A DNA stretch of 64,000 bases from Agrocybe praecox (taxonomy: Eukaryota > Basidiomycota > Agaricomycetes > Agaricales > Agrocybaceae), in assembly GCA_964017145.1 (NCBI GenBank), contig OZ024842.1, positions 1,178,001 through 1,242,000 on the forward strand, given 5' to 3'. A program made the position numbers and the translations under genes. Positions 1-23,905 of this stretch are shown piece by piece. Under the pieces are notes generated by a model that was not told the DNA's origin, did no database searches, and was given only the letters and a program-made list of their open reading frames with translations. Each line of letters opens with the position of its first letter. Position 1 is the stretch's first letter.

Positions 1-1050
1 TGAAACTACCATAACATATCGAGACAGCTAACTTGATGTAGTAGATTACGTGAGTATTGCACTGGATCGCACTTTGATGAGCGAAGCTGATTTGAATGTT
101 GGATACGCTCAATAATACCATAGCGAAGGACGACGAAGAACTAATCGTTAATACCCTTCAAGATAGCCATCCATCGCTCGTTTATATACCAGCTTCTTCA
201 TGGAAGGCTCCGAGCACCAGTGGGATATTCTCAGGGAGTTCAATACAGCAAGTAATGGCCCGCATTTTTCTAAGTCATTGTGTTCGTACCTACCGAGCTA
301 AACGGTCTATTTAGCGCTACCAAAGACTCTAGCGCCATAGCGAAATTTGCCTTTAGAGTGAGTCCCCTTGCTTTCACACCTGTGACTCATATCTTAATTT
401 AAGAAAAGGGCAAGTCAGCCCAGCATCGATCAGTTTTTGTCAAATCCAATCTTGGCTACCCATTCGCAGGAGACGCAATCGCACTTTACGGGCCTGTTGG
501 ACCAAGTTCTACGGAGAGATCTTCTGTTCGAATGGACAATAATAATCCGACTGTGTATTCCGCGAATAAACAAGCCTATAAATCTCCAGAAATACTCTTT
601 CATGCAGGGAATCTGGGTCCAGGGGAACACATGGCACTAGAAATTCAACCGTTTTGGGACAACTAGCCATTGACTATGCTACGGTATACACCACTGTGTG
701 TGTTGGGGGAAGGCAAGCTATACAACATCTTATCAAAACTGTAGAACTGACGCGAAGAACTAACGCAACAGTCTCATTGGTACTGCTGCACCTAATGTGA
801 TCAAAATACAAGAACAGTGAGCTTGATGTATCTCAACTCTCAACTGGATGACTAACATTTGGCATGCTAGTTATTTTAGGATTCCGACATGGAGCAATCG
901 TAGGAACATCGACGCGGCTTGCATGCATATATTTCTTCTAGCGACAAAGAAGACTAATCTACCATGAAAGACAGCCTCATCCTATCCTCCCCGACGCATC
1001 TACGATATATACACATCGAGGTTTCCCCTCCTTTTCGTTGCCCAATGACC
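1..1050 (+). pseudogene. Decayed, edge-truncated copy 1 of the two-repeat membrane-protein array
   Basis: The 5' part lies outside the window. The remains align with copies 2-7. A second-repeat start (DDEELIVN, about 135-170), a 43-nt exon at 315-357, a single-base exon at 409, and the GDAIALYGPVG block from 470 are all recognisable. Reading then fails. The frame runs into TAG at 664-666, while the expected continuation (GQLAIDYATVYT) lies in another frame, so there is a frameshift near 640-655. The transmembrane exon is shortened (GAIVG then LACIYFF), and the Trp before the RQRR anchor is a stop (TAG 939-941). The donor after about 250 is also poor. This is seen directly by comparison with the intact neighbours. 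The 3' boundary is approximate because no PPxY tail can be found. Confidence 0.8.
409..409 (+). other. One-nucleotide exon (G), copy 1
   Basis: Intron 358-408 ends in AG, and intron 410-469 starts GCAAGT and ends GCAG. The single G between them joins GA at 470-471 to make the Gly codon of GDAI. It survives in a copy that is otherwise dead. Confidence 0.65.
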
Positions 1051-1770
1051 CTTCTAAAATCAGGACTTCAATAGTTTCGTTATCGAGCTTTGCGACCAAT
1101 TTGCGACTCCATCCAATCTTTCCTACACTTTAAATTCACTGCCCTATCAAATATCAGTTGGTGCAAATACGCAACATGATGTAAATCAAAATCTCAACTT
1201 CACTGTAGCAGTCATGCTTATATAACCTTTGCAAGTAGATACCGCGCGTCTACGGCCAGTCTCAAGCCAAACGACACGTTGGAGCCCTTGCACTTGGCCC
1301 ATCATGACTAGAGGCAGGGCAAGCTGCCCTACCTCAGTACAGGGCGGGTTTGTAGATGAGTCGGATTTCAGTAGGATTTTTGTCTCACAGGTATACTATT
1401 TGATGGCATGGATCTTGTAATACTTTGATGATGGAAAATTAATCCGGGTCTGCCATTGTCATAGTCTCACAAGGCCCTGGAATACAACATATCTCGGTTG
1501 TACCCTTCCCGCTGATCGTAGACGCTTGATCGCGACGATAGCTCTTCTGCCGATACTTCTACTTGTAGCAGCGGTCTCCATTATGCGGGGCCTTCAAGCT
1601 TTGAGGCGATAGGAATCTAGTGTTGGAAACGGGCGTGTCAAGGTTTCTTGATGTCTCCACTTATATATCGAACAAAGGCAGCTCTCCAGATATCTTTCAA
1701 CCCCGACAATTTCATCCCACTGAACATTGACAGTGGACATACACCTTCTTTTCACTCTTCCTTCTCCAGT
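1051..1770. other. Spacer between array copies 1 and 2
   Basis: It holds no gene I can support. The short open frames here have no resemblance to the neighbouring family, and it probably includes the copy 2 promoter. Confidence 0.5.
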
Positions 1771-3413
1771 ATGCCGAAATTTAACATCACGTTGGAAGAC
1801 ACTTCTCCCATGATTCAATATTCCACAAACTGGCGAGCGGGTACTTCTGCCGACGATTCATCCGCTGACAAGTGAGTACCGAACTTGTTCGACTTCATCA
1901 TAATTTGAGTTCTTATCACGGTCCAAGATACTCCGAGAGTAGCTTCACGCTCACCGCGCAGAAGGGAGAGACCATGGAATTCGACTATTACGGCACAAGC
2001 ATCACATTATTTGGAGCAACGAGGGGGAATCACGGAGTGTATCAAGGACAGTTAGATGGCGGCTCTCTTTTCTCTGCAAATGGGTCAAGCATTACATCCG
2101 CCTTCAATCAGGTTTTATATACCGCCGATTCAACATTAGGCTCTCATAGCATGATAATCACCAATGGCGAAAATAGATTCTTCGACGCTGACTACGTAAG
2201 TAACACAACAAGTAATCTGTCATGCATTCACGAGTAGGGATCTGCGTGCTAAATCGTCGTTCTAGCTCATTTTCGAAACCAGCGTAGGCGGAGACGATGA
2301 AGAGTTGATCATCAACTTATTTGACGATAACCACCCATCTTTTGTCTACACACCGTCTTCTGCGTGGTATACAACGACGGATAAACTGGGGTGGTTTTCT
2401 GGAAGCACAGGGCAGTACGTACTTTACTAGTATTATGTTTTGGTCGGCTCTGCTTACCAAAAAAGAGGTAGTTTTGCAGCTGACTCGTCTGCGATTGCAG
2501 AGTTTACTTTTGAAGTAGGTTTATTGTTGTTTAATTCTTGCCGTTGACTCTAAGCTGCTCCAACTTTTCGTAGGGCAAGTGTCCTATAAAATCGCGATGA
2601 AACTGTTTACATCTTGTTGATATCAGGTTATAACTTCTAGGAGATGCTATTGCACTTTACGGCGCTGTCGGCCCTCAAGGAGCGGACTATTCCGCCCAGG
2701 TTGACTCCAAGAAACCACTCGGTTACTCAACAAAGAAGTCTTTCTACCGACCAAAGGAGGTAATTTTCTATGCCGGAAACCTTGGTAGCGGAAACCACAC
2801 CCTCAGAATCCAGCTCAATAGTACTTCTGCAAATTTTGGCGAACTCGGAATCGACTATGCAAATGTGTACACGACGTCGTCTTTAAGAGGAAGGTAAGTC
2901 ATCGTTGTTTCTCCTTGATGTTGGACTTAAAACAGCAACCTTCTTTATTAGTTTTCTTGGAAGTACATCTCCGAATGTATCCATTGGACGGTGCGTGTCA
3001 TACCCTATCCCGTATATGTACGAAATGCCTAATGCATCAACGCCACACATATGTATAGTGCGACCAAGACCCCAATCGGCATGATAGTCGCGCTGGCCAT
3101 GACCTCAACAATAGCGTTATGTGTGGCTCTGACTTTAATCTATGTGTTCAGGCGCTTCAGTCAGGAAAACTTGCGACTAAAGACTCGGATACACCATGCT
3201 CCGGTGTTACAATCTCCTTTGGGGGGGCTTATGTTGGGTCAAGGTATCTGATTACCCCAGGCTGGAAGTATGTATAGCGAGTACTGACAACCAGTCTCAG
3301 AGTCTGGTTTGTTATTTAGAGATCCTTCGACGTCCAATGGGTCTGCCGAGTTACGTACTGGAGAAAGTATAGACAGGAGTATACGATTACCACCACAGTA
3401 CAGTTTATTTTAG
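1771..3413 (+). CDS. Two-repeat single-pass membrane protein with PPQY tail, array copy 2
   Basis: Function is unknown. Exons are 1771-1871, 1928-2195, 2266-2414, 2472-2514, 2574, 2641-2893, 2952-2990, 3059-3243 and 3301-3413, giving 383 aa. Start MPKFNITLEDTSP matches the start of the sister copies. Repeat 1 (about 34-123) has the signature FYYGTS..LFGA.RGNHG.YQGQLDGG, ending DADY. Repeat 2 (about 124-280) has SSAIAEF, GDAIALYGAVGP, FYAGNLGSGNH and IDYANVYT. Both look like copies of one beta-sandwich, which is reminiscent of galactose-binding-like folds; that is inference. There is no signal peptide. One TM helix at about 290-311 is followed by RR, so the C-terminus should be cytosolic. The tail ends PPQYSLF, a PPxY motif that WW-domain ubiquitin ligases of the Rsp5 class can bind. 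The exon sum is divisible by three only if the single G at 2574 is included. Confidence 0.8.
2574..2574 (+). other. One-nucleotide exon (G), copy 2
   Basis: Intron 2515-2573 ends TAG, and intron 2575-2640 begins GCAAGT and ends CTAG. G plus GA at 2641-2642 gives Gly of GDAIALYG. Confidence 0.75.
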
Positions 3414-3868
3414 CCTACACGATAAATTGAGCGATGGTTTCTGTTGGCAGAACTATAGGCGTCGTGACAGGTACTCTCAGATTTTGAGGCCAATTGCTGG
3501 CAAGGCTGGTAGAAGGTTGGACAGCAATACTTTGCCTTAAGGGGATCGACAAATCTTGCCCCGTCCGGACTCCATTACCAATAAAACGAACGCCCAGAAG
3601 CTATGTAGTCCTGTAGATATGTTCTTAACTTCGGTTCTTCATTTTAGAAATCCCACCAAACAGCCACTATCGAAGAATGAGCGCCCAGATGGATCATGGA
3701 ATGATCCAAGGAATATCTATAATAATATCTTTACTACGAATGGATTGTTGCTCAGCGCAATATCTAGCTCTTTCAATAGTTTCAAGATGATCACGGACAT
3801 CGAAGTTCCCTTGTAATTGAAAGTGGTTGCCCATGATGAGTATGTATGGTAACTTGTACGACCGAGCA
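3414..3868. other. Spacer before LINE insertion
   Basis: No gene is supported. An 86-codon frame at 3556-3816 has no family resemblance and no splice-consistent neighbours. Confidence 0.5.
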
Positions 3869-3885
3869 CAATTGGAGCACAAGGA
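3869..3885 (+). repeat. Target-site duplication, left copy
   Basis: The 17 bases caattggagcacaagga occur here and again directly after a poly(A) tract, flanking the LINE fragment. Confidence 0.85.
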
Positions 3886-4287
3886 ATGTCGTCAGACGTA
3901 TGTGGGTAGCAGCAATGAACAAACGGCTACGAACAGAATGCCTATTGACAGATGTCCGGCGATTTGGAAAGAAAGCCCTAAAGAGGGCGTTGGTGGAAAA
4001 TACATGGTGGGCGGTTCTAAAAGACCGCCGTAACCTAGAGGACGACTGGGTGAGAAATACCGGGGTTTTAGTGGGTATCGACGAACGGCCACCGGGCCGA
4101 AACAGATGAAACCAAGAGTCCCACACTACTCCCTCCTAGGAGTGTGCGTAAATGCATTCCCCCGGTAGGTAGCTGACCAGCAGCGGGGACCCCAAAGTCT
4201 CCGTAAAACAGCTGGGGAAATCGTCTACCGCTGGTAGTCGACGACACCCATAAAAAGCTCCACAAAAAAAAAAAAAAAAAAAAAAAA
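3886..4287 (+). mobile_element. 5'-truncated non-LTR retrotransposon (LINE, probably Tad-like) with poly(A)
   Basis: The insert is 402 bp. It has an open C-terminal reading frame up to the stop at 4107-4109. Motifs such as LTDVRRFGKKALKR, TWW.VL and DDWVR.TGVLVGI look like the extreme C-terminus of basidiomycete LINE polyproteins; I know this from the families and have not searched it. A 3' untranslated stretch of about 155 bp follows, then 24 A residues (4264-4287). It is bounded by an exact 17-bp target-site duplication. Together these are the hallmarks of target-primed reverse transcription with heavy 5' truncation. The perfect duplication and the clean open end suggest a fairly recent insertion. 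Confidence 0.85.
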
Positions 4288-4304
4288 CAATTGGAGCACA
4301 AGGA
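4288..4304 (+). repeat. Target-site duplication, right copy
   Basis: It is identical over 17 bp to 3869-3885 and directly follows the poly(A) tract. Confidence 0.85.
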
Positions 4305-4652
4305 GCTGCGCACTCCTTTGCGGTGGCCGCCGTGCGCTGAAATTGGCATAGCCACAATGGTATCTCTGCAGGAAATCAACATCGACATCAAATCGACACC
4401 AGTTTCATCCAGAATCAACCTGATACAGGGTGCCTGACTCAAAACGAAGATAGCACCTCGCTATTTGGCAATGCAAGGGCTCGGCCATGAAAATCCCTCG
4501 CGTTCCAAGTTCTCTTCGGTTTAACCATCAACTCACTGGTAACAAGCAGCAGGACTGTATTAGCCGGTGTACTTTGGGGAACCAACGTACCGTCAATTTG
4601 TTATCGCTACAGATATATATCTCTTTCTGTGACTCATTTCAACCAGATACTT

Positions 4653-6439
4653 ATGCCCACATTCAACATCACCTTAGAGGACACCTCACCCTTAATTTCC
4701 TATTCCGCGAATTGGTTTCCCGGTACTTCCGGTGATTTATCGTTAGACAAGTGAGCATCGAATTTCATTTGCTCTCAATTAGAAGTACTAATCGACTTCA
4801 AGATATTCTGGTACTAGTTTCTCGGCAACCACATCACAAGGAGAGACCGCCGAATTCGATTTCTACGGGACAAGTATCACAATATATGGAGCGAAGAGGG
4901 CAAACCACGCGACATATACAGGACAATTAGATGACGGCCCTGTATTCACCGGAAATGGTTCGGTCAACCCAGACGCATTCAAGCAACCTTTATATACTGC
5001 GGATTCGACGTTAGGGTCCCATAGAATGACAATAACCAATGCCCAGGATTATTATTTTGACATTGACTACGTGAGTAGTCGATACTGCTAAAGCCTAGAC
5101 TGTTGTACTGAGCGGTTGCCTTAGCTCGTTTTCCAAACCAATGTGGGCCACGATGATGAGGGCTTAGTTGTTAACTCATTTGAAGACAATCATCCTTCTT
5201 TTGTCTATACACCACCTTCCGCGTGGTATACAGCGCTGGATGAAGTGGGGTGGTTTTCTGGAAGCACAGGACAGTATGTATCTTATTTATTCCTTTATGA
5301 ATTACAGTCATTTAAATCATACTTTTGAGTTTCACAAACCAATCTTCTGCCGGAGTACAATTTACTTTCGAAGTAAGTTTCGATTACAGCGAACTGATCG
5401 AGTCGCTTTACCCATTTCTCCCAGGGCAAGTAAATCAGATCCCGAACAAAAAATCCAAGGATCATTAATCCTCAGGGAACAGGCGATGCCGTCATGCTTT
5501 ATGGTGCTGTTGGCCCCCTAGGAGGAGAATACTCCGTGCAGATTGACAACAACAATAGCTTTACCTACTCGACGAAAAAATCGATCTTTCGACCAAAAGA
5601 GGTTATTTTTTACGCTGGAAATCTTGGTGCAGGCAACCATTCTTTACAAGTGCATCTTACTTCTCCAACCTTTGCTCAGCTTTCAATCGATTACGCCACT
5701 GTATATACCTCATCCTCGCTAGGAGGGAGGTAAGCCATCTATCTTCCTTATTTGATTTGAAAATTGACTAAATAAACCTTAATGTCTTTAGTTTTATTGG
5801 AGGCACACTTTCAAATGCTCTCATTAATCAGTACGTTCTCACATTCCGTCTACCTATACTACACATTCAAACGTTACATATAGCAATAGTGGAGAGCTCA
5901 AAATCCCAAATGGCTTCATTGCTGCGCTGAGTGCTACTTCGGGGCTTGCCTTGTTTTCAACGGTGGGGTTCATCTACATGTTTTGGCTCCGAAGACGGGA
6001 TATCTCTTCAAAAAAAGCGGATCCTACACTTCCAGTACGCTATACTTTGACACAAGGTATCTACTCAACTTTCTTTGAGTTACCACCGCTCGACAGTCCG
6101 ACAATTTTCACTAATCCATGATTTTTATTATCCATCAGCGCCGTCTCATTCAATATGGGGTGCCACTTCATCTAGCAGGCCGTCTCAAGCGGCAGTAGAG
6201 CCGGTAAGTTACATTCATGAACCATTACTTCCCACCCGCCGTACGCGAGTGTTAACGTTGACACTGCGTCGTAACAGACACAATCTAGATATTTGCCTCT
6301 GAGTAAACACATCGCTCTCGCAAATGCCCCCCCGCGCGCCCCGACGCGGTTGGAAATGCGCGATGGAGTCAGAATACTAGAAGTTCAAGAAAGAGAAGAA
6401 CCAGAAGTGAGTCCGCCCCAATACAGTGTAGGTCACTAG
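4653..6439 (+). CDS. Two-repeat single-pass membrane protein with PPQY tail, array copy 3
   Basis: Exons are 4653-4750, 4803-5070, 5125-5273, 5330-5372, 5425, 5483-5729, 5792-5830, 5884-6056, 6139-6203 and 6278-6439, giving 414 aa. Start is MPTFNITLEDTSP. Exons 2, 3 and 4 are 268, 149 and 43 nt, exactly as in copy 2. Repeat 1 carries FDFYGTS and YGAKRANHATY. Repeat 2 carries GDAVMLYGAVGP, FRPKEVIFYAGNLG and IDYATVYT. The TM helix at about 291-315 is followed by RRR. The cytosolic tail is longer than in copy 2, and its last exon ends SPPQYSVGH, so the PPxY motif is kept. There is no signal peptide. N-x-S/T sequons sit only in the part before the helix, consistent with an outside N-terminus. 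The ligand is unknown. Confidence 0.8.
5425..5425 (+). other. One-nucleotide exon (G), copy 3
   Basis: Intron 5373-5424 ends CAG. Intron 5426-5482 begins GCAAGT and ends ACAG. G plus GC at 5483 makes Gly of GDAVMLYG. Confidence 0.75.
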
Positions 6440-7546
6440 TACTTAGTTGTTAAGATAACTAAGAGCACTGTTGTTGATACATGATGATCTATTATCTCTA
6501 TGTATGCATAGAGCACTCTTGACTGAGATCCAGAGCCTTGGGAGACCGTGGAACATCAGCGGCCTCGAACTAACTTCTGCCACCATATACACGGTATCGA
6601 ACACGGAAAACAGGATCAGAAACCCGATAAAATTAGCAAGCGTGCTACATAGTAGTAGTAATAGTCCCGTAAATAGCTAAACCCACACCATGCGGGGGTA
6701 ATGGTTGAATGAAGATTTCATTTAGATTTATATTGCGTCGATATGAAGAGGCTGTCAGGACTAACTTCCAAGTGAACCGAAACAAAGACCAGCATCAAGC
6801 GGAGTCTGAAAATTTTTAAACAGTGCTCTCGGCATGCAAATGATTCATTGTTACTTCATGCCACCAAGCGTCTTTTCCTTTCCAAGGACAGCCCGTTCAC
6901 AGTTGAACGTTGAATATCAATGTCAACCGCTATATAATGACTTGCCGAAAATTACGCCAGTTCCACGACCACCCAAGAATAAAGCTTCAGATGGTGTTGA
7001 CATGATGGGCCGATGGCGTTGCTCAAGGTATATGGGAGCATCAGCAGTCAAATTCAAATTCAAAACGCAGGGCAAAATTAACTTCGACGGGCACCCCGGG
7101 CTGTAAATGAAGACCACGATTATCTTGCTACCGAAACATTCAGCCATGCAACATCGACTATTGAACAAAACGAGGTATTCATTACGGTGTATGTGTTCTG
7201 TGTGTTAACTAGGTCGCAAAAATGCGGATGGCTCTTGACGCGCTTGGAAATTGGAATATACTGTAAGCCAATGTTCTCCTGAGCCTGCGGTTTGATGGCG
7301 TTCGTGAGAAAGCCGAACATCGCAGTTTCTTAAAGTTAAAATCATCATATGTCGGTGGACTCTATATGTAGCTACTACAAGGCTGCCACTATCCCCCGTG
7401 CTCTCTTTTCTTGTCCTCGCCTACGATCAACAGCGCTCAGCGGTCAAAAGTCACGGCGCTTGACCTGGCCAACTATTCGCGCGAACGTAGTGTGAAGTCG
7501 AGATACAACATAAAGCCACTTTTCTTCGACTTGTTCCTCGATACTT
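6440..7546. other. Spacer between copies 3 and 4
   Basis: About 1.1 kb with no supported gene. A 90-codon frame at 6834-7106 resembles nothing I know. The sequence gatacttatgcc around the start codon is shared with copy 3, so the proximal promoter was duplicated with the gene. Confidence 0.5.
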
Positions 7547-9348
7547 ATGCCTATATTCAACATCACCCTAGAAGACACTTCGCCATTACTTCGCTATTCC
7601 ACCAACTGGCGAGCAGGTACTTCGGCCGATGATTCATCTGCAGACCAGTGAGCATTGACTTTGATCGGCTTGTGCGGGATTTGAGTACTCACCACCGTTC
7701 AAGATACTCTGAGAGTAGCTTCACGCTCACCGCGCAGCAGGGAGAGACGATGGAATTTGACTTCTACGGCACAAGCCTCACACTATTTGGATCAAAGAGG
7801 GGGAATCACGGAGTGTATCAAGGACAGTTGGATGGCGGCTCTGTGTTCTCTGGAAACGGTTCGGCCAGCACATTTGCGTTCAAACAACCCCTATATACCG
7901 CCAGTTCAACATTGGGTTCTCATAGCATGGTAGTTACGAACCAACAAAATACGTTCTTTGATGTTGACTATGTGAGTAATAAGTAAATGTTAAGAGCAAC
8001 CGTCGTTTTGTTGAACTATTGTGCGGCTAGGTTATTTTCCAAACCTCTGTCGGTCGAGATGACGAAGACTTAATTGTTAACTCGTTTGAAGATGATCATC
8101 CGTCTTTCGTCTATACACCAGCCTCCGCATGGTATACAACAACCGATACAGTGGGATGGTTTTCCGGGAGCACTGGACAGTGCGTATCATACTATCTTAT
8201 TCTATTTCTGTTAAATAATCACGATAACCTTTTAGTTTCACGAACCAAACGTCCGCCATAGCTCAGTTCAATTTCCAAGTAAGTACTGCCTCCATCAGAC
8301 ATCGAAATATCTTAATCTAGTATATCCTAGGGCAAGTTCAGCATAAAGTTATACTCACGTCTTGCTAATGCCCTAAGATTGATAGGTGATGCAGTCGCAC
8401 TCTATGGCGCTGTTGGCTCCAACGGAGCAGAATACTCCGTCCAGGTTGACAAGAATAACAGCCAGATCTACAATGCCAAAAAATCCTTCTTCCGACCAAA
8501 GGAGGTGCTTTTTTACGCCGGAAATCTTGGTTCCGGTAATCATTCTCTACAAGTGCAGATTAATTCTGCAGCTTTGGCTGAGCTATCAATTGATTATGCC
8601 ACTGTGTACACAACGTCTTCATTGGGAGGGAGGTGGGCCCTCTAATCTCCACTATTCTTTGACAATAAATTAACATTCACCGTTGTCTATGTCGATAGTT
8701 TCTTGGGAGTTACACCTCCGAGTATTGATATTATCACTGGACAGTGCGTTTTCATATCGCGTCTGCTTTATTTAAACATTCCGACACTATACACAGCGAG
8801 GCCAAAACCCCGACTGGTATTATAGCAGCGCTAGCCGTCACTTCAGCCCTCGCTTTGATTTCAACACTGGCTTTCATCTTTATTTTTTGGCGACAACGAC
8901 GAGAACGCTCATCACTCAAAGCTATCCCTGTACCTCCCATGGGTCACAATCTGACACAAGGTATTTTACTCAACTTTACCTGGTCTGCACTGCCCAGTGC
9001 TAAGAACAACTTTTAGCACCACCTGTTTCTGTTTTGCCATCCACACAATTTCCCAGTCCTACAACCACTACAGGATTGTCGTATACTTCGCCCTCGGTTC
9101 CTTCGACGGTAGGCCCTTCATCTAGCGTGTCATCTGGCGGGGCAGTAGCAGCAGTGAGTAGTGTCTGATGTTCAAAATAAATCTGTCAGCTCAATATTAA
9201 TTCTACGAAATAGTCGTCGTCTGGATATATGCCCCAAGGTAAACGTAATGCCGCCATGCTTGCGATGTCTGATGCCAATGATGGAGTGTACCCTGGAGAA
9301 AGAAGGATTACGAGAGAAATCAATCCACCACAGTACAGTGTAGGTTAG
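7547..9348 (+). CDS. Two-repeat single-pass membrane protein with PPQY tail, array copy 4
   Basis: Exons are 7547-7647, 7704-7971, 8031-8179, 8236-8278, 8331, 8386-8632, 8699-8743, 8797-8960, 9017-9153 and 9214-9348, giving 429 aa. Start is MPIFNITLEDTSP. Exon 2 is nearly identical to that of copy 2 over long stretches while the adjoining introns differ more, which suggests recent duplication or conversion. Repeat 2 has GDAVALYGAVG, FRPKEVLFYAGNLG and IDYATVYTTSSLGGR. The TM helix at about 291-315 ends in WRQRRER. The tail is Ser/Thr/Pro-rich and then ends INPPQYSVG. The last exon is read in a different frame from the longest open frame of that segment; the PPQY frame is the one that keeps the total divisible by three. 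Confidence 0.8.
8331..8331 (+). other. One-nucleotide exon (G), copy 4
   Basis: Intron 8279-8330 ends CTAG. Intron 8332-8385 begins GCAAGT and ends ATAG. G plus GT at 8386 makes Gly of GDAVALYG. Confidence 0.75.
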
Positions 9349-9643
9349 CAATTACCCAATGTTAATACGTATGGAGCGTGGATAATGGAGGTCCGGAGAC
9401 TCGGGTTTCGAGGTGATAGTGATATTTTTAGACATCATGATCAGCGCATCCCTCAGATGCCCAGCTTATTCTTTACACATATTCATTGAGCCTGAAGTTC
9501 CTTTCATCATTACAATATGGCATGTTTCGAGTTTATATAATCGTACGTATGATTTCAAGCTCAATCGTCGACGGCCACCGCATCTTTCTTTCGTTTCAAC
9601 ATCATATCCAGCATAATAGAGAAGTCCTAACTTATCGAAAGCG

Positions 9644-11480
9644 ATGCCCTCTTTCACAATTACTCTGGAGGATACCTCGCCTCTGATTCGGTATTCCTCA
9701 AACTGGAGTGCTGGCAGTGCTGGGGATAACCAACTTGACCAGTGAGTACCTTTTACAGTTTTTTCAAGTCAGATACTGAGATGACACGAATGGCATATAC
9801 TAGGTACTCAGAGAAAAGCTTTATGCTTACTCAAAAGCAAGGCGAGGCCATGTCCCTTGATTACTATGGTACCGACGTTACTGTGTTCGGCGCGAAACGC
9901 TTCAATCATGGAAAATATCAGGCTCAGTTGGATGGCGGATCCGTATCAACGGCAAATGGGGTATCATCCGACGCTCTCTTCAACCAAGTTATGTATAAGA
10001 GCAGTGGTGCGTCTCTTGGGAAGCATACCGTCACGGTGACGAATGGCGAGAATCTCTTCTTTGATGTGGACTATGTAAGTAATTCAAAAATATTATCACT
10101 ATTTCGTGTCTCTTGCATTCTATCATTTGTGCTAAAGGAAAGGTGTAAAGATCACATTTCAAACCAATATTGGCCAGGACGGCGAAGAGCTTATCGTTAA
10201 TACGTTCCAAGATAATCATCCTTCCTTTACTTACAGTCCTTCGTCATCGTGGGGGCAGCCTGGAGATCGAGTTGGATGGTTCTCGGGCAGCACGGGACGG
10301 TAAGTGCTAGTTGGGCCTGGGGATTGCTTTTCGGGAGTTCTTGTTCTTATACACTTGTCCAGCCTCACCACTGATGCGTCCGCTATCGCCAAGTTTCTTT
10401 TCCAAGTACGTTTTTTTATTATCAGAATTTTTGTAGCTCAGGGATAATTAATAAATCAACAATTTACAGGGTGGGAATCATGTGAGGCCGTATGGATGAA
10501 AGCTAATCAACAGAACAGGGGATGCTATTGCGCTATACGGATCCGTTGGACCAAGTGCAACAGATAAATACTCAGTACAGATCGACAACCAAAGTCCGAC
10601 CGTGTATTCAGCCAAATCACAGTTTTACAAGCCACAAGAGGTATTGTACTACGCCGGAAATCTTGGTACAGGGAATCACACTTTGCAAATACAAATAACC
10701 TCTTCGTCCCTGGGGGAACTCGCAATTGACTATGCGGACGTATATTCGACACCGTCGTTGGGCGGAAGGTGAGATCTTTGTTGAGACATATACTCGAAAT
10801 GTGAACTGATTGTTTACCAGCTTTCAATTCTCGAGCGCCGGCACCGGTACTACGACTGGCACCGGCTCGTGAGTACTGGGTCCTGAGAACATGCCGCGAA
10901 TGTTTTTCTGACTTTTTTTGTCACAGGACAAGCGTAACCGTCAAATCAACGCCCAAAGGTGTTATCGCCGGGCTTGCGGTGACTTCGGCCATTGCTTTAA
11001 TAGCCACGCTGGCTTGTATGTATCTGCTTTGGCGTCAGAGAAGAAACGATTCTGTCACGGAGAAACAGGCCGCAGCTCTTCCGAGTAGTTCGAACATGGC
11101 ACAAAACAATCGTAATAATTTATATACTGCTCATTTTTTTGTCCTAATTTTGACGCGTCAAACAGAAATCTACGCGCCTACAAATGTATCTGCTTCTGCC
11201 ACTGGGAGCAATTATCCTATTGTGAACGTAGGCTCGTCTTATGCACTGTCAGGTCCCCCTTCAAATACAGCTGCGTCAAATGCGTCATTTGCTACTGGTA
11301 CATCTCCGGTAAGGTTTCATCGTACTTCGTTGTCGCGCCATAAGTTTGCTCAAACGATGACAGTCGACCCACTACACATCGGGTTATCTTCCGCAGGGCA
11401 AACGAAACCTGGAAATGAGCAGAAACCTTGCTGCAGAAGGCGAGATCCCCATGGCGCCTCCCCAGTATACGATGGGATAG
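9644..11480 (+). CDS. Two-repeat single-pass membrane protein with PPQY tail, array copy 5
   Basis: Exons are 9644-9741, 9804-10074, 10151-10299, 10363-10405, 10470, 10519-10768, 10821-10868, 10927-11111, 11166-11308 and 11397-11480, giving 423 aa. It is more diverged from copies 2-4 but has the same exon plan. Repeat 1 has LDYYGTDVTVFGAKRFNHG. Repeat 2 has GDAIALYGSVGPS, YKPQEVLYYAGNLG and LAIDYADVYS. A short Thr/Gly linker precedes the TM helix (about 298-320), which ends in LLWRQRRN. The intron 11112-11165 is 54 nt and stop-free, so its retention would keep the frame and add 18 residues. The final exon ends MAPPQYTMG and keeps a GKRN element shared with copy 4. The second intron around the one-base exon is only 48 nt. 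Confidence 0.8.
10470..10470 (+). other. One-nucleotide exon (G), copy 5
   Basis: Intron 10406-10469 ends CAG. Intron 10471-10518 begins GTGGGA and ends ACAG. G plus GG at 10519 makes Gly of GDAIALYG. Confidence 0.75.
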
Positions 11481-12567
11481 TGAATTATGTGTCGGATATT
11501 GCATTTGCGGTATGTAGGTACTTGTATTTTGGACGCGTTTAGGCGTAACGCGTACATGTGACTACGTGTTTGAGGTCACCGCTCACCGCTCATGCATCAT
11601 GATTAATAACTACAAGCCATGCGCCTCGCTTCGCTCCGGCACCAAAAATACGAATAAAATTTGGAGAGCATATGGCAAGGAGTCAGAGCATAGCCGTAAA
11701 GTGTAAGCATCAAAATGATACCAAAATCAAAGGAAGGTGAAGGTGAAGATGACACTGAAAAGGCATGATAATATCTGTAAAATTTGGCGAGGTAAAATGG
11801 AGAGATGGAGGACAAAGGATGGAACATAGCGAGAGCAATAAAAATACGTCATCAAAATGAGAAAAAAAGAGTGAAAAGAACAATAAGATTTACCTAAAGA
11901 GGTGCAAAAATAAACATGTACACACGAACTTACGCGTTTGCTTAATAGTAGAGTATAGTAATGTTGCCGGCGGTCGGAGACCCGGGAGTCGAAGTCGAAT
12001 ACCACCGTGCGGCTCACTTCCGGAACTGAGTACTGCCTAAGTGCTAAGTAACAGCGACACATACCACTCGCAATTTCTGTGGTCCGGTTTTATGTATGAG
12101 ATGTAAAAGTAACAACGCCTCAGCGTCATCTACCAGCAGCGAAAGATGCCTCGATTCCAAATTCCGTCTTTTACAAGCGCAAACGACTCGCAAAACCTGA
12201 ATGTAGTATCCAAGAAAACCAAGGTGACAATTTTACTTCCAAGAATATTGAATTGTCCACTGTATTGGACCCAACAAGAGTCAGCTATTTTCTCTCCAGT
12301 CTATCATTGGGTGTAGTAAGTGGCGTGCTTGTTCTCGAAAACTTTGATTATTTTTGCGGTAACCATCAACTGTCAAGTAGGTCGGCAGACACTGTAAAGC
12401 AACATACCTGGGGCAAACAGAGCCAAGTGCGACACAATCATCAAATCCCACCTGTTCTCACCATTGATAACACACGGTCTCGTTGAAGCTTTACTGACTG
12501 GACTTTTCTATCCACTGGAGCAGGCCTCCCTCTCATTTCGTCTCCTTCGCTATTTGTTAGCAGTCCG
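11481..12567. other. Spacer between copies 5 and 6
   Basis: About 1.1 kb with no supported gene. Open frames on both strands are short and unrelated to any family I recognise. Confidence 0.5.
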
Positions 12568-14421
12568 ATGCCCTCCTTTACCACAGTAGTCAAAGATACT
12601 TCACCCATACTCCTTTATTCGTCAACTCCCCCATGGAAGTCTGGGACATCCGAGTCAGATGCAGCGGCTGATCAGTGCGAAGAACTTTTTGCTCAAGTGA
12701 TACTTTGAGGCTAATAATTCTTTACAAAATGTGTTTAGGTATTCGGAAAGCAGCTTCACTCTTACGAACAATGCCGGGGCATCTATGCGTTTCCCTTTTT
12801 ACGGAAAATCTGTGCAGGTTTTTGGAGCCAAACGTGCCAATCATGGACTATACGCAGTTCAGATGGACAGCAATGTTACTCCTGCAGAGAATGGGTCATC
12901 GAGTAGTCCATTATTCAATCAGATGTTGTTCACCGCAGACCTCACCCTTGGTCCTCATAACCTTACTGTGATCAACAATGAAAACAATTTTTTTGACATT
13001 GACTACGTATGTTCCCTTCTTTAATCTTTCTTACACAAGTGCTCATCATTTTTTCTCTGCAGATTACCTTCGATACAAGTGTTGGGACCGACGAGGAAGA
13101 TCTGATTATCAATTCGTTTCAAGACTCACACCCCGCATTTACATATGAGCCTCCCACAGCCTGGACGCAACCTAGCAGTAATATAGGGTCATTCTCTGGT
13201 TCTTCGGGCCAGTCAGTCATTGTTTGAAGCCTGTCTTTGCGTGATGATGTAGTAACTTATTAACTTGATTTACTAGCGCGACGACATCGCCCTCCGCTGC
13301 GAGCATATTTCACTTCGAAGTAAGTCGCTTGCTTAAAAACCGCGAGACTTTTCTGACCATCCTCCGCAGGGTAAATGGATTCTTCGATAACGACCGAGTC
13401 AAATTTGAATATTTTTCCCGCTCTAGGCGATGCCATTACACTGTACGGACCCGTTGGACCAAATGCTGCCACCTCATATCTAGTGACGATTGATAACGGG
13501 ACAACTCTCCCTTACTCGGCCGACAAACAGTTTTACAGGGCACAACAAATTTTGTATACCGCCTCAGGTCTAGGTCGTGGGCCACATTCGTTAGAAATAA
13601 AACTCGGGGGCAATGGAGAACTCGCTATTGATTATGCAAACGTGTACACGACGAAGTCGCTAGGGGGAAGGTGTGTTCGTCGCAATGAGAATATGGAACC
13701 ATCTAACCATCGTATAATTAGTTTCTTGGACACAGCTCCAATCACCACCAATCAGACGTAAGCTATTTCTGTACTATCTTCCTCTCGAAACGACTTATTC
13801 ATGAGCGTAACCGTTTCATTCTTCTATAGTTCCCTTCCAGGAGGAGCAATCGCTGCTATCGTTATTCTTGCGCTCATTGCCGTGACCTCTAGCTTATACT
13901 GCATTTATCTATTACGACGTCAGACCTACTTCAAGCGGAAGATTGAGAGATCCATGGCCAATGTGGCTGAATCAAAGATTATTCAACCATATATACTACC
14001 TCCTCCTGGGCCTCCGAGTCAATATAGAGAACCAAGTCAAATCGGCAGAGATTATGATATATATGGACGAAATCCGAACGAAAGCGCCTATGCGTTCAGT
14101 ACGCCTGCTCCAAGCACTAATCCACCGAGTACTGCTCCTGCTCTAAGTTACGCCTCTTCTTCAGCACGTTATGTAAGTGAAATTGAATCTTCGAGCTCAG
14201 AGTGTTGTCTTCGTCAAATCTAGTGAGCTACCAGGCTGATCATTCCATTGTTTTCCTAGCCACAAGAAAAAAGAGGCCCCAGTCCTTCTGGTGGTCAATC
14301 AGGTCAGGCATCGGGATATAATACGCGGGGGTACGAAGACGTATACGACGACTTACCTGCGTCTGGAAATAATCCTCCGCCTCAATATATGGCAGGCAAT
14401 TCAAGAGGGCCGACTGGTTAA
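12568..14421 (+). CDS. Two-repeat single-pass membrane protein with PPQY tail, array copy 6
   Basis: Exons are 12568-12674, 12739-13006, 13063-13211, 13277-13319, 13370, 13427-13670, 13722-13757, 13830-14172 and 14260-14421, giving 450 aa. Start is MPSFTTVVKDTSP. Repeat 1 has FPFYGKSVQVFGAKRANHG. Repeat 2 has GDAITLYGPVGPN, QQILYTASGLGRGPH and LAIDYANVYT. The TM helix at about 287-308 is followed by LLRRQTYFKRK. The cytosolic tail is the longest of the array, rich in Pro, Ser and Tyr, and includes PPPQYMAG at about 436-443. As in the other copies there is no signal peptide. Both introns flanking the one-base exon are standard GT-AG here, which removes the doubt that a rare donor type raises in copies 1-4. 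Confidence 0.8.
13370..13370 (+). other. One-nucleotide exon (G), copy 6
   Basis: Intron 13320-13369 begins GTAAGT and ends GCAG. Intron 13371-13426 begins GTAAAT and ends CTAG. G plus GC at 13427 makes Gly of GDAITLYG. Confidence 0.78.
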
Positions 14422-15267
14422 TCAAGTTCCGTTGGGTTACTTCTACTTTTTCTAATAGGCATAGTGGTCAGGCTTTTGCTCCTTCATCTCAAGTCACTCT
14501 TTTAACAGAAAATCTACGTATATATGTATTCATCTGTATTTTCTGAATCCTTTCTCCAACCAACTTTCGTCGTTAAACTTAAAAAGCATGTGTAGTATGT
14601 CACGTGCAGGTATAATGACGGGTCACGGCATAGCATAACCGTCGCATTGGATACAGGACACAACTTTTGACCAACTGTTGACCAACTGTTTCTTGAACTT
14701 GATTTTGACTACGATGGACAAAAACTACCCTTACCTCTGTGAGAATATGTTGTTATCATCTGAATTCTGGTAACCCTCAGGAGGCCAGGAACGTATTTCG
14801 AAAACATCAGGCGATTGTGCCTCAATGGACATCTTAAGCTACATTCCGCCGTACCCTACGATTGTTGTCTAGGAATCGAGGCAAATGACTCATCACCTCT
14901 CCTGTCTTCTGGTGTTGTAAGACGAATGAGCGCACAGCCAGCGAGGCAAGGATAGCACAAGAACTTTTCAACGCAGGCTAATTGATGCATATATCGCTTA
15001 TACCGCATCGTAACGACGTGCTTGAGAACATATCTCGAGAAAAAGGAACAAAGCGTACCTTGGTACCCCTGGAACGATGGCGGTCGCACCTTTCTCGAGG
15101 TGTCGGGACTTGATACTTATAGCTGGATTACCTCGTTGGGTTTCAACTATTGATTCCCGCACATTGTTAAAGGCTGAATGGCCACTTACTTTGATTCAAC
15201 CCACCAAACCAGTATCTCACCTTTTATTTGTGAACTTGGCCGACTCTTGCTTTTTTTCAGCCCGCGA
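14422..15267. other. Spacer between copies 6 and 7
   Basis: No gene is supported. It presumably holds the copy 6 3' region and the copy 7 promoter. Confidence 0.5.
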
Positions 15268-16826
15268 ATGCCTTCACTTTTGTCTCTAGTAGAAGCTAAT
15301 TCACCTATACTCAGCTACTCATCTATTCAATGGGGCACTGGAAGCTCCGAAACCGATGGATTAACTGACGGGTAAGAACTTTCAAGAGTGCAGTGATTCA
15401 ACAGTCGGTACAGTACTGACAGAAAAGCAGTTATACACAGAATAGCTTTCGTCGTACGCGAGATAAAGGAGCGTTTATGTCTTTCAACTTCTACGGCTCT
15501 TCCGTGGAGGTGTTTGGCGCCAATCGCTTCAACCATGGCAATTACAGTGCAAAATTGGATGATATGAGCTCTGTGACGATGAATGGGCTATCGAGCTTGC
15601 CTTTATTTAATCAAACGTTATTTACCGCGGATGCAGACCTCGGTTTTCATACTGTCACGATTGTTAATGAAGACGATCAACAATATTTGGACGTTGACTA
15701 TGTCTGTATTCCGTCCAGCCCTGCAGAAACCATTTCTTACTACCCATGGAAATTATAAACAGGTTACCTTTCGAACGAGTATCGGCGAAGACGATGAACA
15801 GCTAATCACTAATATTTTTGGGGACTCTCACCCTGCATTTACCTACAATCCGTCAACTGCATGGTCAACGCCTGCATATAGGGGCAGTTTCGTAGGCCTG
15901 GGGCAGTTAGTTATTATTTTATAAAATGGTACGCACGAGTCCTGATTTTCCTGATTTCTTTATTAGTGCGACATCAACACTATCGGCCTCATGCGTTTTC
16001 AACTTTGAAGTAAGTGTGTACTTATGTTCCAAGCACCCACCCTTAGAGGCGTTTATTTGTCGTTTGATTAAATATTAGGGTGAGTCCTGTGAATATATGG
16101 CGGCGAAGAAACATTATGAAAAGGTCTGTCTAATTCCCAGGAGACATGGTTACACTGTACGGACCTATTGGGCCAAACTCCACCACTGCATACTCGATAA
16201 AGGTCGACGATAGGAATGCGACCTTCTTTTCTGCTCAAAATCAATTTTATACAGCTCAACAAATACTATTCACTACGGGGGGTCTTGGACCTGGTTCTCA
16301 TTCCCTTCACATCGAGATGTACGGTCCAGGAGAACTAGCTATTGATTATGCCACCGTGTATAGCGTACCATCACTGGGAGGAAGGTTCGCCTGCTAACAC
16401 TATGTTTATTGCTGCGCTACGCTAAACAAGATACCCAAACAGCTTCCTTCTAGCACAACCGGCGTCTCCCCCTTCTGATAATACGCACTGCATTCAACCG
16501 GGATGGTCAATTATTGTCGTTGTCTCGTCCACAATCCTTGCGATAGGTTTGCTACAGGGCTTTGCCTACTATTTCTTGCAGCGACGTAGGAAAAGAAGGC
16601 TCTGTTTAACCACGGGACCGAATACCATTGAACCCTTTACAGAGGAAATTGTATGTTGGTTGCATGAAGCCCTTCTCGCTGTTCTTTTGTTTATTGCACT
16701 CATTCTATTGCTTTGCAGGGCGGAGCAAGGCGCCATTATTGGTATGCTCCTTTTACAAAACGCAGCTATGGCCCGAATCTATCTGCCAACTCAGCAAGCC
16801 GCCCTCCACCACACATGATTTCCTAG
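15268..16826 (+). CDS. Two-repeat single-pass membrane protein lacking PPxY, array copy 7
   Basis: Exons are 15268-15371, 15431-15701, 15763-15905, 15967-16009, 16079, 16141-16384, 16443-16650 and 16719-16826, giving 373 aa. It is the most diverged array member. Repeat 1 is MSFNFYGSSVEVFGANRFNHG, with the usual ESSFTLT stretch replaced by a basic run. Repeat 2 has GDMVTLYGPIGPN, FTTGGLGPGSH and LAIDYATVYS. The exon that normally lies between repeat 2 and the helix is fused into the TM exon. The TM helix at about 289-312 is followed by LQRRRKRR. The tail ends PPPHMIS, so the PPxY tyrosine is missing. Two donors are weak (GTCTGT at 15702, GTTCGC at 16385), so those junctions are less certain, although the frame closes exactly. 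Confidence 0.72.
16079..16079 (+). other. One-nucleotide exon (G), copy 7
   Basis: Intron 16010-16078 begins GTAAGT and ends TTAG. Intron 16080-16140 begins GTGAGT and ends CCAG. G plus GA at 16141 makes Gly of GDMVTLYG. Confidence 0.78.
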
Positions 16827-22092: not shown

Positions 22093-23905
22093 ATGCCTAC
22101 GCTCAGCACGACGATTGAGGATACCTCTCCCGTTATCATGTACTCTGGAATTTCGGGAGGAGATTGGATAACGGGGACATCTGGAAATGACTCCGCAACG
22201 GATCAGTATGCATATTCTCTGCGAATTTGTTATCCGCTTCTGATCATACTGTCATAAATCTGCTATAGGTACTCTCAGAGCAGCTTCATGGTCACAAAAA
22301 AGCCTAATGCGAGCGTATCGTTCTCGTTCTATGGCACTGGCATACAAATATACGGAGCGAAACGTTCGAATCATGGTTTGTTCCAGATCCAGATCGACTC
22401 GACGGTATATCCGAAAGTCAGCGGGAAGGCGAGCAATCCAGAGATTTTTCAGACGGCGCTATTCTCCACGGTTGCGCTCGATAATGGTTTTCATAATGTT
22501 ACGATGAGGAACGTAGGGCCCAGTGGTACAGCGCTAGATATTGATTTCGTACGTTTTCTTGTTTAATCTGACGAACGATTAGCTGAACTTGATATTTATC
22601 CTTTATAGCTCACCTGGCAAACGCCTATAGGATTGATCAATGAACCTCTGGTATCGCTGACGGCACAAGATTCCGACTCGTCATTCAAGTACACACCGGA
22701 GTCCAAATGGAATGCGAATCCGACGAATCTTGGGATGTTCTTAGGTGGTTCCGGGCAGTACGTCGACTTCTTCAATTTAACAATTCGGTTGATAATTTCC
22801 TCGAAGTGCTACAACGACTCCAGGTGCTTCTGTGGAGTACACGTTTTCAGGCGCCGCCGTTGCTGTATACGGTGCCGTAGGCCCCAACTGTGCACCTTAT
22901 TCAGTACAGTTGGACCAAGAACTCCCTGCCAACTATTCCTCGTACAAAAGATTTTACCGACCACAGACCATGTTGTTCCAAGCCGGTAATCTTGCATCGG
23001 GTCAGCACACTATACGGATCGTCTCTGAGGCTTGGGATAATTCAGGAGTGACGCTGAGTATTGACTATGCGGAGGTGTTTACTGTTGCTTCACTACAGAA
23101 AAGGTGTGTTCGCTCGAATTTCGATCGCTTGATCAACGACTGAATAATGGAAACTTAGTTCTGCTGCTGCGTGAGTTGCATTATATGCAAATATTGACGA
23201 AGCGATTTTATACTAAAACCCAAAGGTAGATTATCAACTGGAGTCATTGCAGGTATCTCTATAGGGTCTTTGGCCCTCTTTCTCCTGCTTGTGGTTCTTG
23301 TACTTCTCATACTCCGTTGGCGTGCTGCACCTTTCGTAAACTTGAAAACTGGATTCCTTCGACTAAAGGAAAAGTCCAAAAGGAAGACATCGGTACCAGG
23401 GATTTCCACCTCGCAGGAATTTGATTATCGGCCTATTATTACACCCACTAGTGTCTCAGAAGGCGGACATGTGTGGCTCAATAATTCACAGAATCCCTCA
23501 CATATCCCGTTGAATGGCATCACATCTCCTTCTTCGGGCATGTGGCCTTCATCTGATGACGCATATGGATCGCCTACGGAGATGATACTTTCTGATCATC
23601 CTAGTGTGCGTGTTCTAGTATTAGTATCCCTAATCCCCAACTCGTATTATTATTGTCATTATTATTATTAACGTACAACTCCCCCTTTTTTTTCAGTCAA
23701 CTTCACAAGCGCAAGTAATCCTTATGCCACCCACGTCGGATGAGAAATACCGTCCTGATCTATTTGCAACATCCACGCCGCTACTAATGCCGCCTCCACA
23801 AAGGCAAGGACAGGTGTACCACAGAAGCTCTAGTACGCTATCTGCATCTGCTCGACATCCGGGATTCCTGCCTCCTGGAGCGAGGCCGCCCAGTCCAAAT
23901 CTGAT
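21489..23905 (+). repeat. Direct duplication, unit 1 (carries copy 8)
   Basis: The segment from gagcggtctatga through the copy 8 coding region to the PNL codons recurs at about 25037-27432 with high identity and small indels. Ends are estimated by eye. Confidence 0.85.

What the first reader, a model, noticed from the sequence alone, without database searches (positions are those of the whole stretch)
358..16140. A one-nucleotide exon conserved in seven tandem paralogues
Seen: in each array copy an exon ending in Glu, Gln or Arg is followed by an intron, one G, a second intron, and then an exon that needs that G to start the Gly codon of G-D-(A/M)-(I/V). Positions are 409, 2574, 5425, 8331, 10470, 13370 and 16079. 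The junction is always AG|G|GY. Treating both introns as one shifts the frame; translating the second intron meets stops in the copies I checked (copies 3, 4 and 6). With the G, the full exon sums of all six intact genes are divisible by three. Known: single-base exons are very rare; one was reported in a plant APC11 gene. Fungal 'stwintrons' (intron pairs spliced stepwise) are a related idea. Inference: removal of intron 1 creates the donor for intron 2, so splicing is obligately sequential or at least compatible with it. A whole gene family kept this way would be new to me.
Basis: partly seen in the sequence, partly recalled or inferred. Interest (0 to 1): 0.9.

Follow-up and report, generated by a model that had tools for sequence, protein, structure and literature searches.

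The report
Single-nucleotide exon in mushroom gene family
In a family of mushroom genes for what look like cell-surface proteins, one lone letter of DNA appears to be a complete exon sitting between two short introns; such exons are already known from a few plant and fungal genes, but here one seems to be shared by at least eleven gene copies and probably by relatives in other mushrooms, and gene-finding software often gets it wrong.

Summary
Confirmed and extended. At all seven stated positions the DNA reads intron–AG|G|GY–intron. Four more paralogues (two on C12, one on C6, one farther along C3) have the same arrangement: 11 of 14 family members found. Two others in the window (near 22,850 and 26,390) have no intron there and read F-S-G directly; one has a single phase-1 intron. 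A spliced aligner with no preference for tiny exons put a one-nucleotide exon in 77 of 77 best models against transcript-like proteins. In 44 of 46 transcript-like relatives I found the site, always F-x-G. In 37 of 118 genome-derived gene models Val follows x directly; 17 of these carry the error expected of a predictor blind to one-nucleotide exons. This suggests wide spread in Agaricales.

Corrections: a single intron with a donor four bases downstream is in frame in 9 of 11 copies; copy 4's second intron has no in-frame stop; removing intron 1 does not create intron 2's donor, so splicing order is not fixed by sequence. Single-nucleotide exons are already published (plant APC11, VPS55; Fusarium CYP621A), so this is a new, unusually widespread member of a known kind. 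No RNA of this species was examined.

The parts
409..409 (+). 1-nt exon (G), copy 1 (degenerate copy); intron 1 358-408, intron 2 410-469 (GC donor)
2574..2574 (+). 1-nt exon (G), copy 2; intron 1 2515-2573, intron 2 2575-2640 (GC donor)
5425..5425 (+). 1-nt exon (G), copy 3; intron 1 5373-5424, intron 2 5426-5482 (GC donor); an alternative in-frame acceptor exists here (E-G-T-G-D)
8331..8331 (+). 1-nt exon (G), copy 4; intron 1 8279-8330, intron 2 8332-8385 (GC donor; open reading frame if retained)
10470..10470 (+). 1-nt exon (G), copy 5; intron 1 10406-10469, intron 2 10471-10518 (GT donor)
13370..13370 (+). 1-nt exon (G), copy 6; intron 1 13320-13369, intron 2 13371-13426 (GT donor)
16079..16079 (+). 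1-nt exon (G), copy 7; intron 1 16010-16078, intron 2 16080-16140 (GT donor)
1771..3167 (+). copy 2 modelled coding region (exons 1771-1871, 1928-2195, 2266-2414, 2472-2514, 2574, 2641-2893, 2952-2994, 3069-3167; last exon approximate)
   Evidence: spliced alignment
4653..6004 (+). copy 3 modelled coding region up to the predicted membrane helix (last exons approximate)
   Evidence: spliced alignment
7547..8905 (+). copy 4 modelled coding region up to the predicted membrane helix (last exons approximate)
   Evidence: spliced alignment
9644..11041 (+). copy 5 modelled coding region up to the predicted membrane helix (last exons approximate)
   Evidence: spliced alignment
12607..13929 (+). copy 6 modelled coding region (start of first exon not reached by the alignment)
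   Evidence: spliced alignment
15307..16590 (+). copy 7 modelled coding region (start of first exon not reached by the alignment)
   Evidence: spliced alignment
22832..23098 (+). paralogue with no intron at the site; exon reads straight through F-S-G-A
26372..26638 (+). paralogue with no intron at the site; exon reads straight through F-S-G-A

Best explanation
A single G is a constitutive one-nucleotide exon between two ordinary short spliceosomal introns (phase 0, then phase 1). It supplies the first base of the Gly codon in the conserved F-x-G-[D/E] turn of the second beta-sandwich domain of a protein family that is probably membrane-anchored. Each intron is probably recognised as a unit (intron definition) with its own donor and AG. 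Because the acceptor of intron 1 and the donor of intron 2 are one base apart, they probably cannot be used at once, so the introns are removed one after the other; after either is removed the other is a conventional intron, so order is not dictated by sequence. Skipping the G shifts the frame. Likely history (inference): the phase-1 intron is the older one (a distant paralogue has it alone), an intron was gained one base upstream, the pair spread with gene duplication through Agaricales, and two window paralogues lost both. Shown here: DNA structure, conservation, frame need, agreement with transcript-like sequences of relatives. Inferred: splicing itself, its order and its history.
For: 11 of 11 copies have AG|G|GY in the right place on intron sequence otherwise nearly saturated. 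Spliced alignment put a 1-nt exon in 77 of 77 best models (11 genes x 7 transcript-like queries) although it pays for an extra intron and for GC donors; score gain 0.5 to 42.5 units over the best model without one. In the best-scoring model of each of the 11 genes it is this G and the only 1-nt exon; I did not print its place in the other 66. Paralogues read F-S-G with no intron (2) or have one phase-1 intron (1), giving the frame independently. F184 and G186 are invariant in 29 aligned sequences, which I chose because their site reads cleanly. 44 of 46 transcript-like relatives show the site and all 44 read F-x-G, none with Val there; eight of the 44 are near-identical (P0029-P0035, P0037). 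In 118 genome-derived models 37 have Val straight after x; 17 of these have exactly one extra residue and it is R, S, G or W in 17 of 17, as a [+4 base]-G-N codon requires (only Cys, also allowed, is unseen). The control exon 2/3 junction is contiguous by regular expression in 112 of 118 models. For Laccaria bicolor the model P0017 is garbled at this junction while transcript-like contigs that otherwise match it (92% over 357 residues, the garbled stretch included) read F-A-G-D; that they are the same species is inferred from this match.
Against: No RNA of this species was available. 'Transcript-like' is my label for short contigs with uninterrupted open frames; I did not see that they are RNA. 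DNA of the other species was not available, so their exon structure is inferred from model errors. Aligner margins are small in copies 2 and 3 (0.5-3.5 units in 14 runs) and in one run of copy 1 (3.0). My aligner charges gaps linearly, which is harsh on long insertions such as retained intron 2 of copy 4. Insertions are also frequent in public models at residues 270-289, so faulty annotation is not unique to this site. 37 of 118 models were called clean, four of them by my script landing on the N-terminal domain; 10 more have G and then another sequence, which may mean that some relatives have only the phase-1 intron.
Confidence: 0.92

Rival explanations
1. There is one long intron, not two: the donor is the GT at +4 inside the GTRAGT, spliced to the last acceptor, giving x-V-(S/R/G/W)-D and no 1-nt exon.
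For: In frame and stop-free in 9 of 11 copies. 17 of 118 public gene models have just this form.
Against: Not available in C12a (no GT there) and C6 (codon becomes a stop). Needs weaker donors and introns of 102-138 nt, against a median of 57.5 nt (range 51-100) for 38 other introns in these models. Loses or displaces the Gly that 44 of 44 transcript-like relatives and the intronless paralogues have in place. Leaves the conserved mid-intron AG|G|GY unexplained.
Confidence: 0.04
2. Intron 2 is (sometimes) coding: only intron 1 is removed and the stretch after the G is an optional exon extension.
For: Open in copies 1 and 4. Intron 2 is a multiple of three in copies 1-5 (60, 66, 57, 54, 48 nt).
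Against: A stop lies inside retained intron 2 in six copies (2, 3, 5, 6, C12b, C3far) and follows by frame shift after it in three (7, C12a, C6); lengths are not multiples of three in copies 6, 7, C12a, C12b, C6, C3far; little similarity between copies; no transcript-like relative has such an insert.
Confidence: 0.02
3. [quoted passage not shown]
For: Two adjacent introns probably removed in succession; removal of intron 1 slightly improves the modelled second donor in 9 of 11 copies.
Against: The base between the introns is exonic and needed in the mRNA; the second donor is complete beforehand; reading the sequences by eye I found no parse that puts the internal intron inside the donor or acceptor (definition in PMC5639578, passages).
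Confidence: 0.02

Closest known systems
Single-nucleotide exon of plant APC11 (Guo & Liu 2015, PMC4674806; Nat Commun 2022, PMC8831610)
   Same: One-nt exon between two spliceosomal introns, missed by annotation, intronless homologues exist (most monocots), conserved over land plants; passages seen.
   [quoted passage not shown] the base is A in Arabidopsis; shown experimentally there, not here. Here G, in at least 11 paralogues of one fungal genome.
1-nt microexon of plant VPS55 (PMC8831610)
   Same: 1-nt exon in one paralogue clade, absent in the other; conserved GTRAGT donor (passages).
   Different: Two paralogue clades rather than an expanded tandem family; no GC donors mentioned in the passages seen.
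Single-nucleotide exon of Fusarium CYP621A (Nelson & Syed 2026, PMC12940212)
   [quoted passage not shown] RNA reads support it (parts 1 and 2 of 3 of the text read).
   Different: One orthologous gene across Fusarium (Ascomycota); there the base is the middle of the Gly codon, here the first. Here a paralogous family in Agaricales, 5 of 11 copies with GC donors.
Stwintrons (PMC5639578, passages; others in the listing)
   Same: Two introns in immediate succession, probably removed one after the other.
   Different: In stwintrons a splice signal of the outer intron is split and nothing between the introns stays in the mRNA; here an exonic base lies between complete splice sites.

Membership tests
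Single-nucleotide exon | One base bounded by acceptor AG and donor GT/GC | tested here: met
   11 of 11 copies
Single-nucleotide exon | The base is needed for the reading frame | tested here: met
   Without it a premature stop follows in 11 of 11 with the first donor and last acceptor; a +4 donor can restore frame in 9 of 11 but loses or displaces the conserved Gly
Single-nucleotide exon | Homologues lacking the introns carry the base | tested here: met
   Two intronless window paralogues and one single-intron paralogue
Single-nucleotide exon | RNA shows the base between the two exons | tested here: inconclusive
   44 of 46 transcript-like relatives show the site and all 44 read F-x-G, but they are other species, not verified as RNA, and their genomic structure was not seen
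Stwintron | Internal intron interrupts donor, branch point or acceptor of the external intron | tested here: not met
   Both introns have complete own donor and acceptor; definition from passages
Stwintron | External intron functional only after the internal one is removed | not testable with these tools
   Needs splicing intermediates; the sequence gives no such dependence
CE2_N (PF17996) domain family | Pfam score above the curated cut-off | tested here: inconclusive
   Copy 2 as modelled: no match. Of 4 relatives scanned, 1 exceeds the cut-off (P0011, 30.3 vs 27.9 bits), 3 fall below

The most novel reading that the evidence does not exclude
The one-nucleotide exon predates the split of the main Agaricales suborders and has been carried through dozens of gene duplications, making it the most multiplied one-nucleotide exon known, and its two-step splicing (with frame-shifting skip products) acts as a built-in control on expression of a receptor-like surface protein family.
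Probability: 0.12. Interest if true: 0.8.

Novelty: new member of a known kind. Interest (0 to 1): 0.6.

Why it matters
It turns a curiosity known from three nuclear genes that I could find in print into a natural series: many paralogues with the same one-base exon but diverged introns and GT or GC donors, plus paralogues with one or no intron at the same codon. That would let splicing order, the minimum exon and skip rates be compared directly in mushrooms. It also explains a recurrent, recognisable error in public mushroom gene models (F-x-V-S/R/G-D in place of F-x-G-D).

Tried and rejected
Tried without yield: DNA relatives in bacterial/archaeal genomes and viral contigs (none); Rfam on 3700-4450 (none); Pfam on copy 2 (none). 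I tried by hand to deduce from the garbled Laccaria model whether it has one or two introns at the site and could not.

Considered and rejected: one intron with the +4 donor; coding intron 2; stwintron parses with the internal intron in the donor or acceptor; sequencing error (the site recurs in 11 genes). The hit L032, which looks like the first rather than the second domain, also has a single phase-1 intron at the matching spot; I did not count it among the 14. For the tree I asked for 46 sequences (14 of this genome, 32 relatives); P0131 and P0133 fell out because my pattern did not find the domain start, leaving 44 rows and 90 columns. It groups the 11 one-nucleotide-exon genes with nine close relatives in one clade (100/98), but leaves the place of the intronless pair and much of the deeper order open, so gain and loss are inference.
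Full report
WHAT IS THERE. The window is C3:1178001-1242000 of a 59 Mb genome in 347 contigs. Its nearest protein relatives are from Agrocybe pediades and other Agaricales (taxonomy), at best about 55% identity for copy 2, so the species itself appears not to be in that protein collection. Searching the same genome with the second-domain peptide gave 14 family members. Eleven have the same arrangement: the seven array copies, two on C12, one on C6, and one at C3:1243001 just beyond the window. Two window paralogues near 22,850 and 26,390 have no intron at this codon and read F-S-G-A straight through; one on C2 has a single phase-1 intron after the G. These three give the reading frame without any assumption about a tiny exon.

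IS IT MORE THAN CHANCE. Shuffling the intervening sequence gives AG|G|GY with two introns of at least 45 nt in 0.32 of 11 copies on average, against 11 seen. The copies are related, but on average their intron interiors are as unlike as shuffled sequence; the C12 pair in intron 2 and two intron-1 pairs with copy 1 exceeded my cut. So the site has been kept while most of the rest decayed. A spliced aligner that I wrote (introns 40-250 nt, GT or GC donors, extra cost for each intron and for GC) was given seven transcript-like proteins and eleven genes: 77 of 77 best models contain a one-nucleotide exon. In the top model of each gene it is this G and there is no other; its place in the other 66 was not printed. 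Margins over the best model without one run from 0.5 (copy 2) to 42.5 (C12a); they are 0.5-3.5 in all 14 runs of copies 2 and 3.

RIVALS IN THE DNA. A GTRAGT donor holds a second GT four bases on. Copy 3 also has an upstream in-frame acceptor (E-G-T-G-D). Skipping the G with the first donor and last acceptor leads to a premature stop in all 11.

EVIDENCE FROM OTHER SPECIES. Three protein searches gave 164 relatives (one search listed 120 of 127, and only about 8000 candidates were scored). I split them into 46 transcript-like (short contigs with long open frames, my label, by source and contig length) and 118 models from genome records. Of the 46, 41 were called F-x-G by script; P0095, P0111 and P0118 are F-x-G by eye; in P0099 and P0150 I found no such site. 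None of the 44 has Val after x. Of the 118 models, 37 were called clean (four of these, P0061, P0139, P0141 and P0163, look by eye like the script landing on the first domain), 37 have Val directly after x, 10 have G then something else, 13 other, and 21 had no recognisable exon-4 end; among those 21, P0104, P0110 and P0128 read F-S-G-E by eye. At a control junction (exon 2/3) 112 of 118 models are contiguous by regular expression. Fisher's test of Val against clean, models against transcript-like (37:37 against 0:41), is 1e-9, though sequences are related. Seventeen models have Val plus one extra residue, and that residue is R, S, G or W in 17 of 17: a codon made of the +4 base of intron 1 and the GN that starts exon 6 can only be S, R, G, C, W or a stop (my derivation). 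These 17 come from Agrocybe, Flammula, Gymnopilus, Mycena, Coprinopsis, Lyophyllum, Collybiopsis, Collybia, Rhodocollybia, Panaeolus and Cyathus (names as listed). I looked up nine of the species: eight fall in the suborders Agaricineae, Marasmiineae and Tricholomatineae, Panaeolus is unplaced in Agaricales. So the same one-base shortfall seems to exist across Agaricales. This is inference from protein models; I saw no DNA of those species. In a first pass of 45 models the bin holding this junction had the most inserted residues of any (168), but residues 270-289 were also poor (182 over two bins).

HOW IT PROBABLY WORKS. Both introns are of ordinary size for these genes (48-77 nt in the 11 copies; median of 38 other introns 57.5 nt) and have their own donor and acceptor. 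Acceptor 1 and donor 2 are one base apart, so simultaneous use is unlikely and the introns are probably taken out one at a time, as Guo and Liu suggest for APC11 (passages). GC donors are enriched at intron 2: 5 of 11 against 2 of 38 other introns, one of these two in a doubtful stretch (Fisher 0.004). Why is unknown. The Gly lies between predicted strands 179-185 and 188-196 of relative P0007 (model mean pLDDT 74.9), and F184 and G186 are invariant over 29 sequences chosen for a clean reading there. The model has two beta-rich domains, matched in a PDB comparison by carbohydrate-binding modules and plant ANX receptor ectodomains (TM-scores by target up to 0.65 for single modules, low by query), a helix at 285-318 that I take for a membrane anchor, and a low-confidence tail.

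ORIGIN (INFERENCE). The phase-1 intron occurs alone in the C2 paralogue, so it may be the older one, with the phase-0 intron gained one base upstream. The alternative proposed for CYP621A, loss of an exon base rescued by a cryptic AGGGT in the intron (PMC12940212), is not excluded. The tree puts all eleven genes in one supported clade with nine near relatives, but does not resolve the deeper order.

PRIOR ART. Published nuclear cases that I found: plant APC11 and VPS55 (passages) and Fusarium CYP621A (parts 1 and 2 of 3 read); a mitochondrial cox1 case in placozoans appears in search listings. Searches for one-nucleotide exons under several names, for microexons with basidiomycete, Agaricomycetes or mushroom, and for stwintrons listed no title or abstract start that reports one in mushrooms (open-licence library only, listings not read through). 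Hence a new member of a known kind, notable for copy number, GC donors and breadth.

Noticed in passing
window 3869-4304: A poly-A tailed insertion (poly-A from 4264) flanked by a 17-base direct repeat at 3869 and 4288, looking like a short retroposed element; no Rfam match.
   Followed up: partly
C-termini of the family (relatives P0007, P0011, P0049 and others): A PPxY motif occurs in the last 60 residues of 35 of 35 transcript-like relatives of at least 400 aa (several near-identical), against 1.2 expected from shuffles; that PPxY binds WW-domain proteins such as Rsp5-type ligases is recalled.
   Followed up: partly
intron 2 of copies 1-5 (410-469, 2575-2640, 5426-5482, 8332-8385, 10471-10518): All five lengths are multiples of three, although three of the five contain in-frame stops; the other six copies are not multiples of three. 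Unexplained, possibly chance.
   Followed up: no
window 105-648: Copy 1 looks degenerate (stop within exon 6) yet keeps the one-nucleotide exon arrangement.
   Followed up: partly
public models P0010, P0015, P0018, P0019, P0036, P0040, P0044 and ten more: F-x-V-(S/R/G/W)-(D/E) in mushroom proteins of this family looks like a recognisable mark of a missed one-nucleotide exon.
   Followed up: yes
L032 (C3:1923067, minus strand): A first-domain-like relative has a single phase-1 intron at the matching F-T-G codon, hinting that the phase-1 intron may predate the domain duplication.
   Followed up: no
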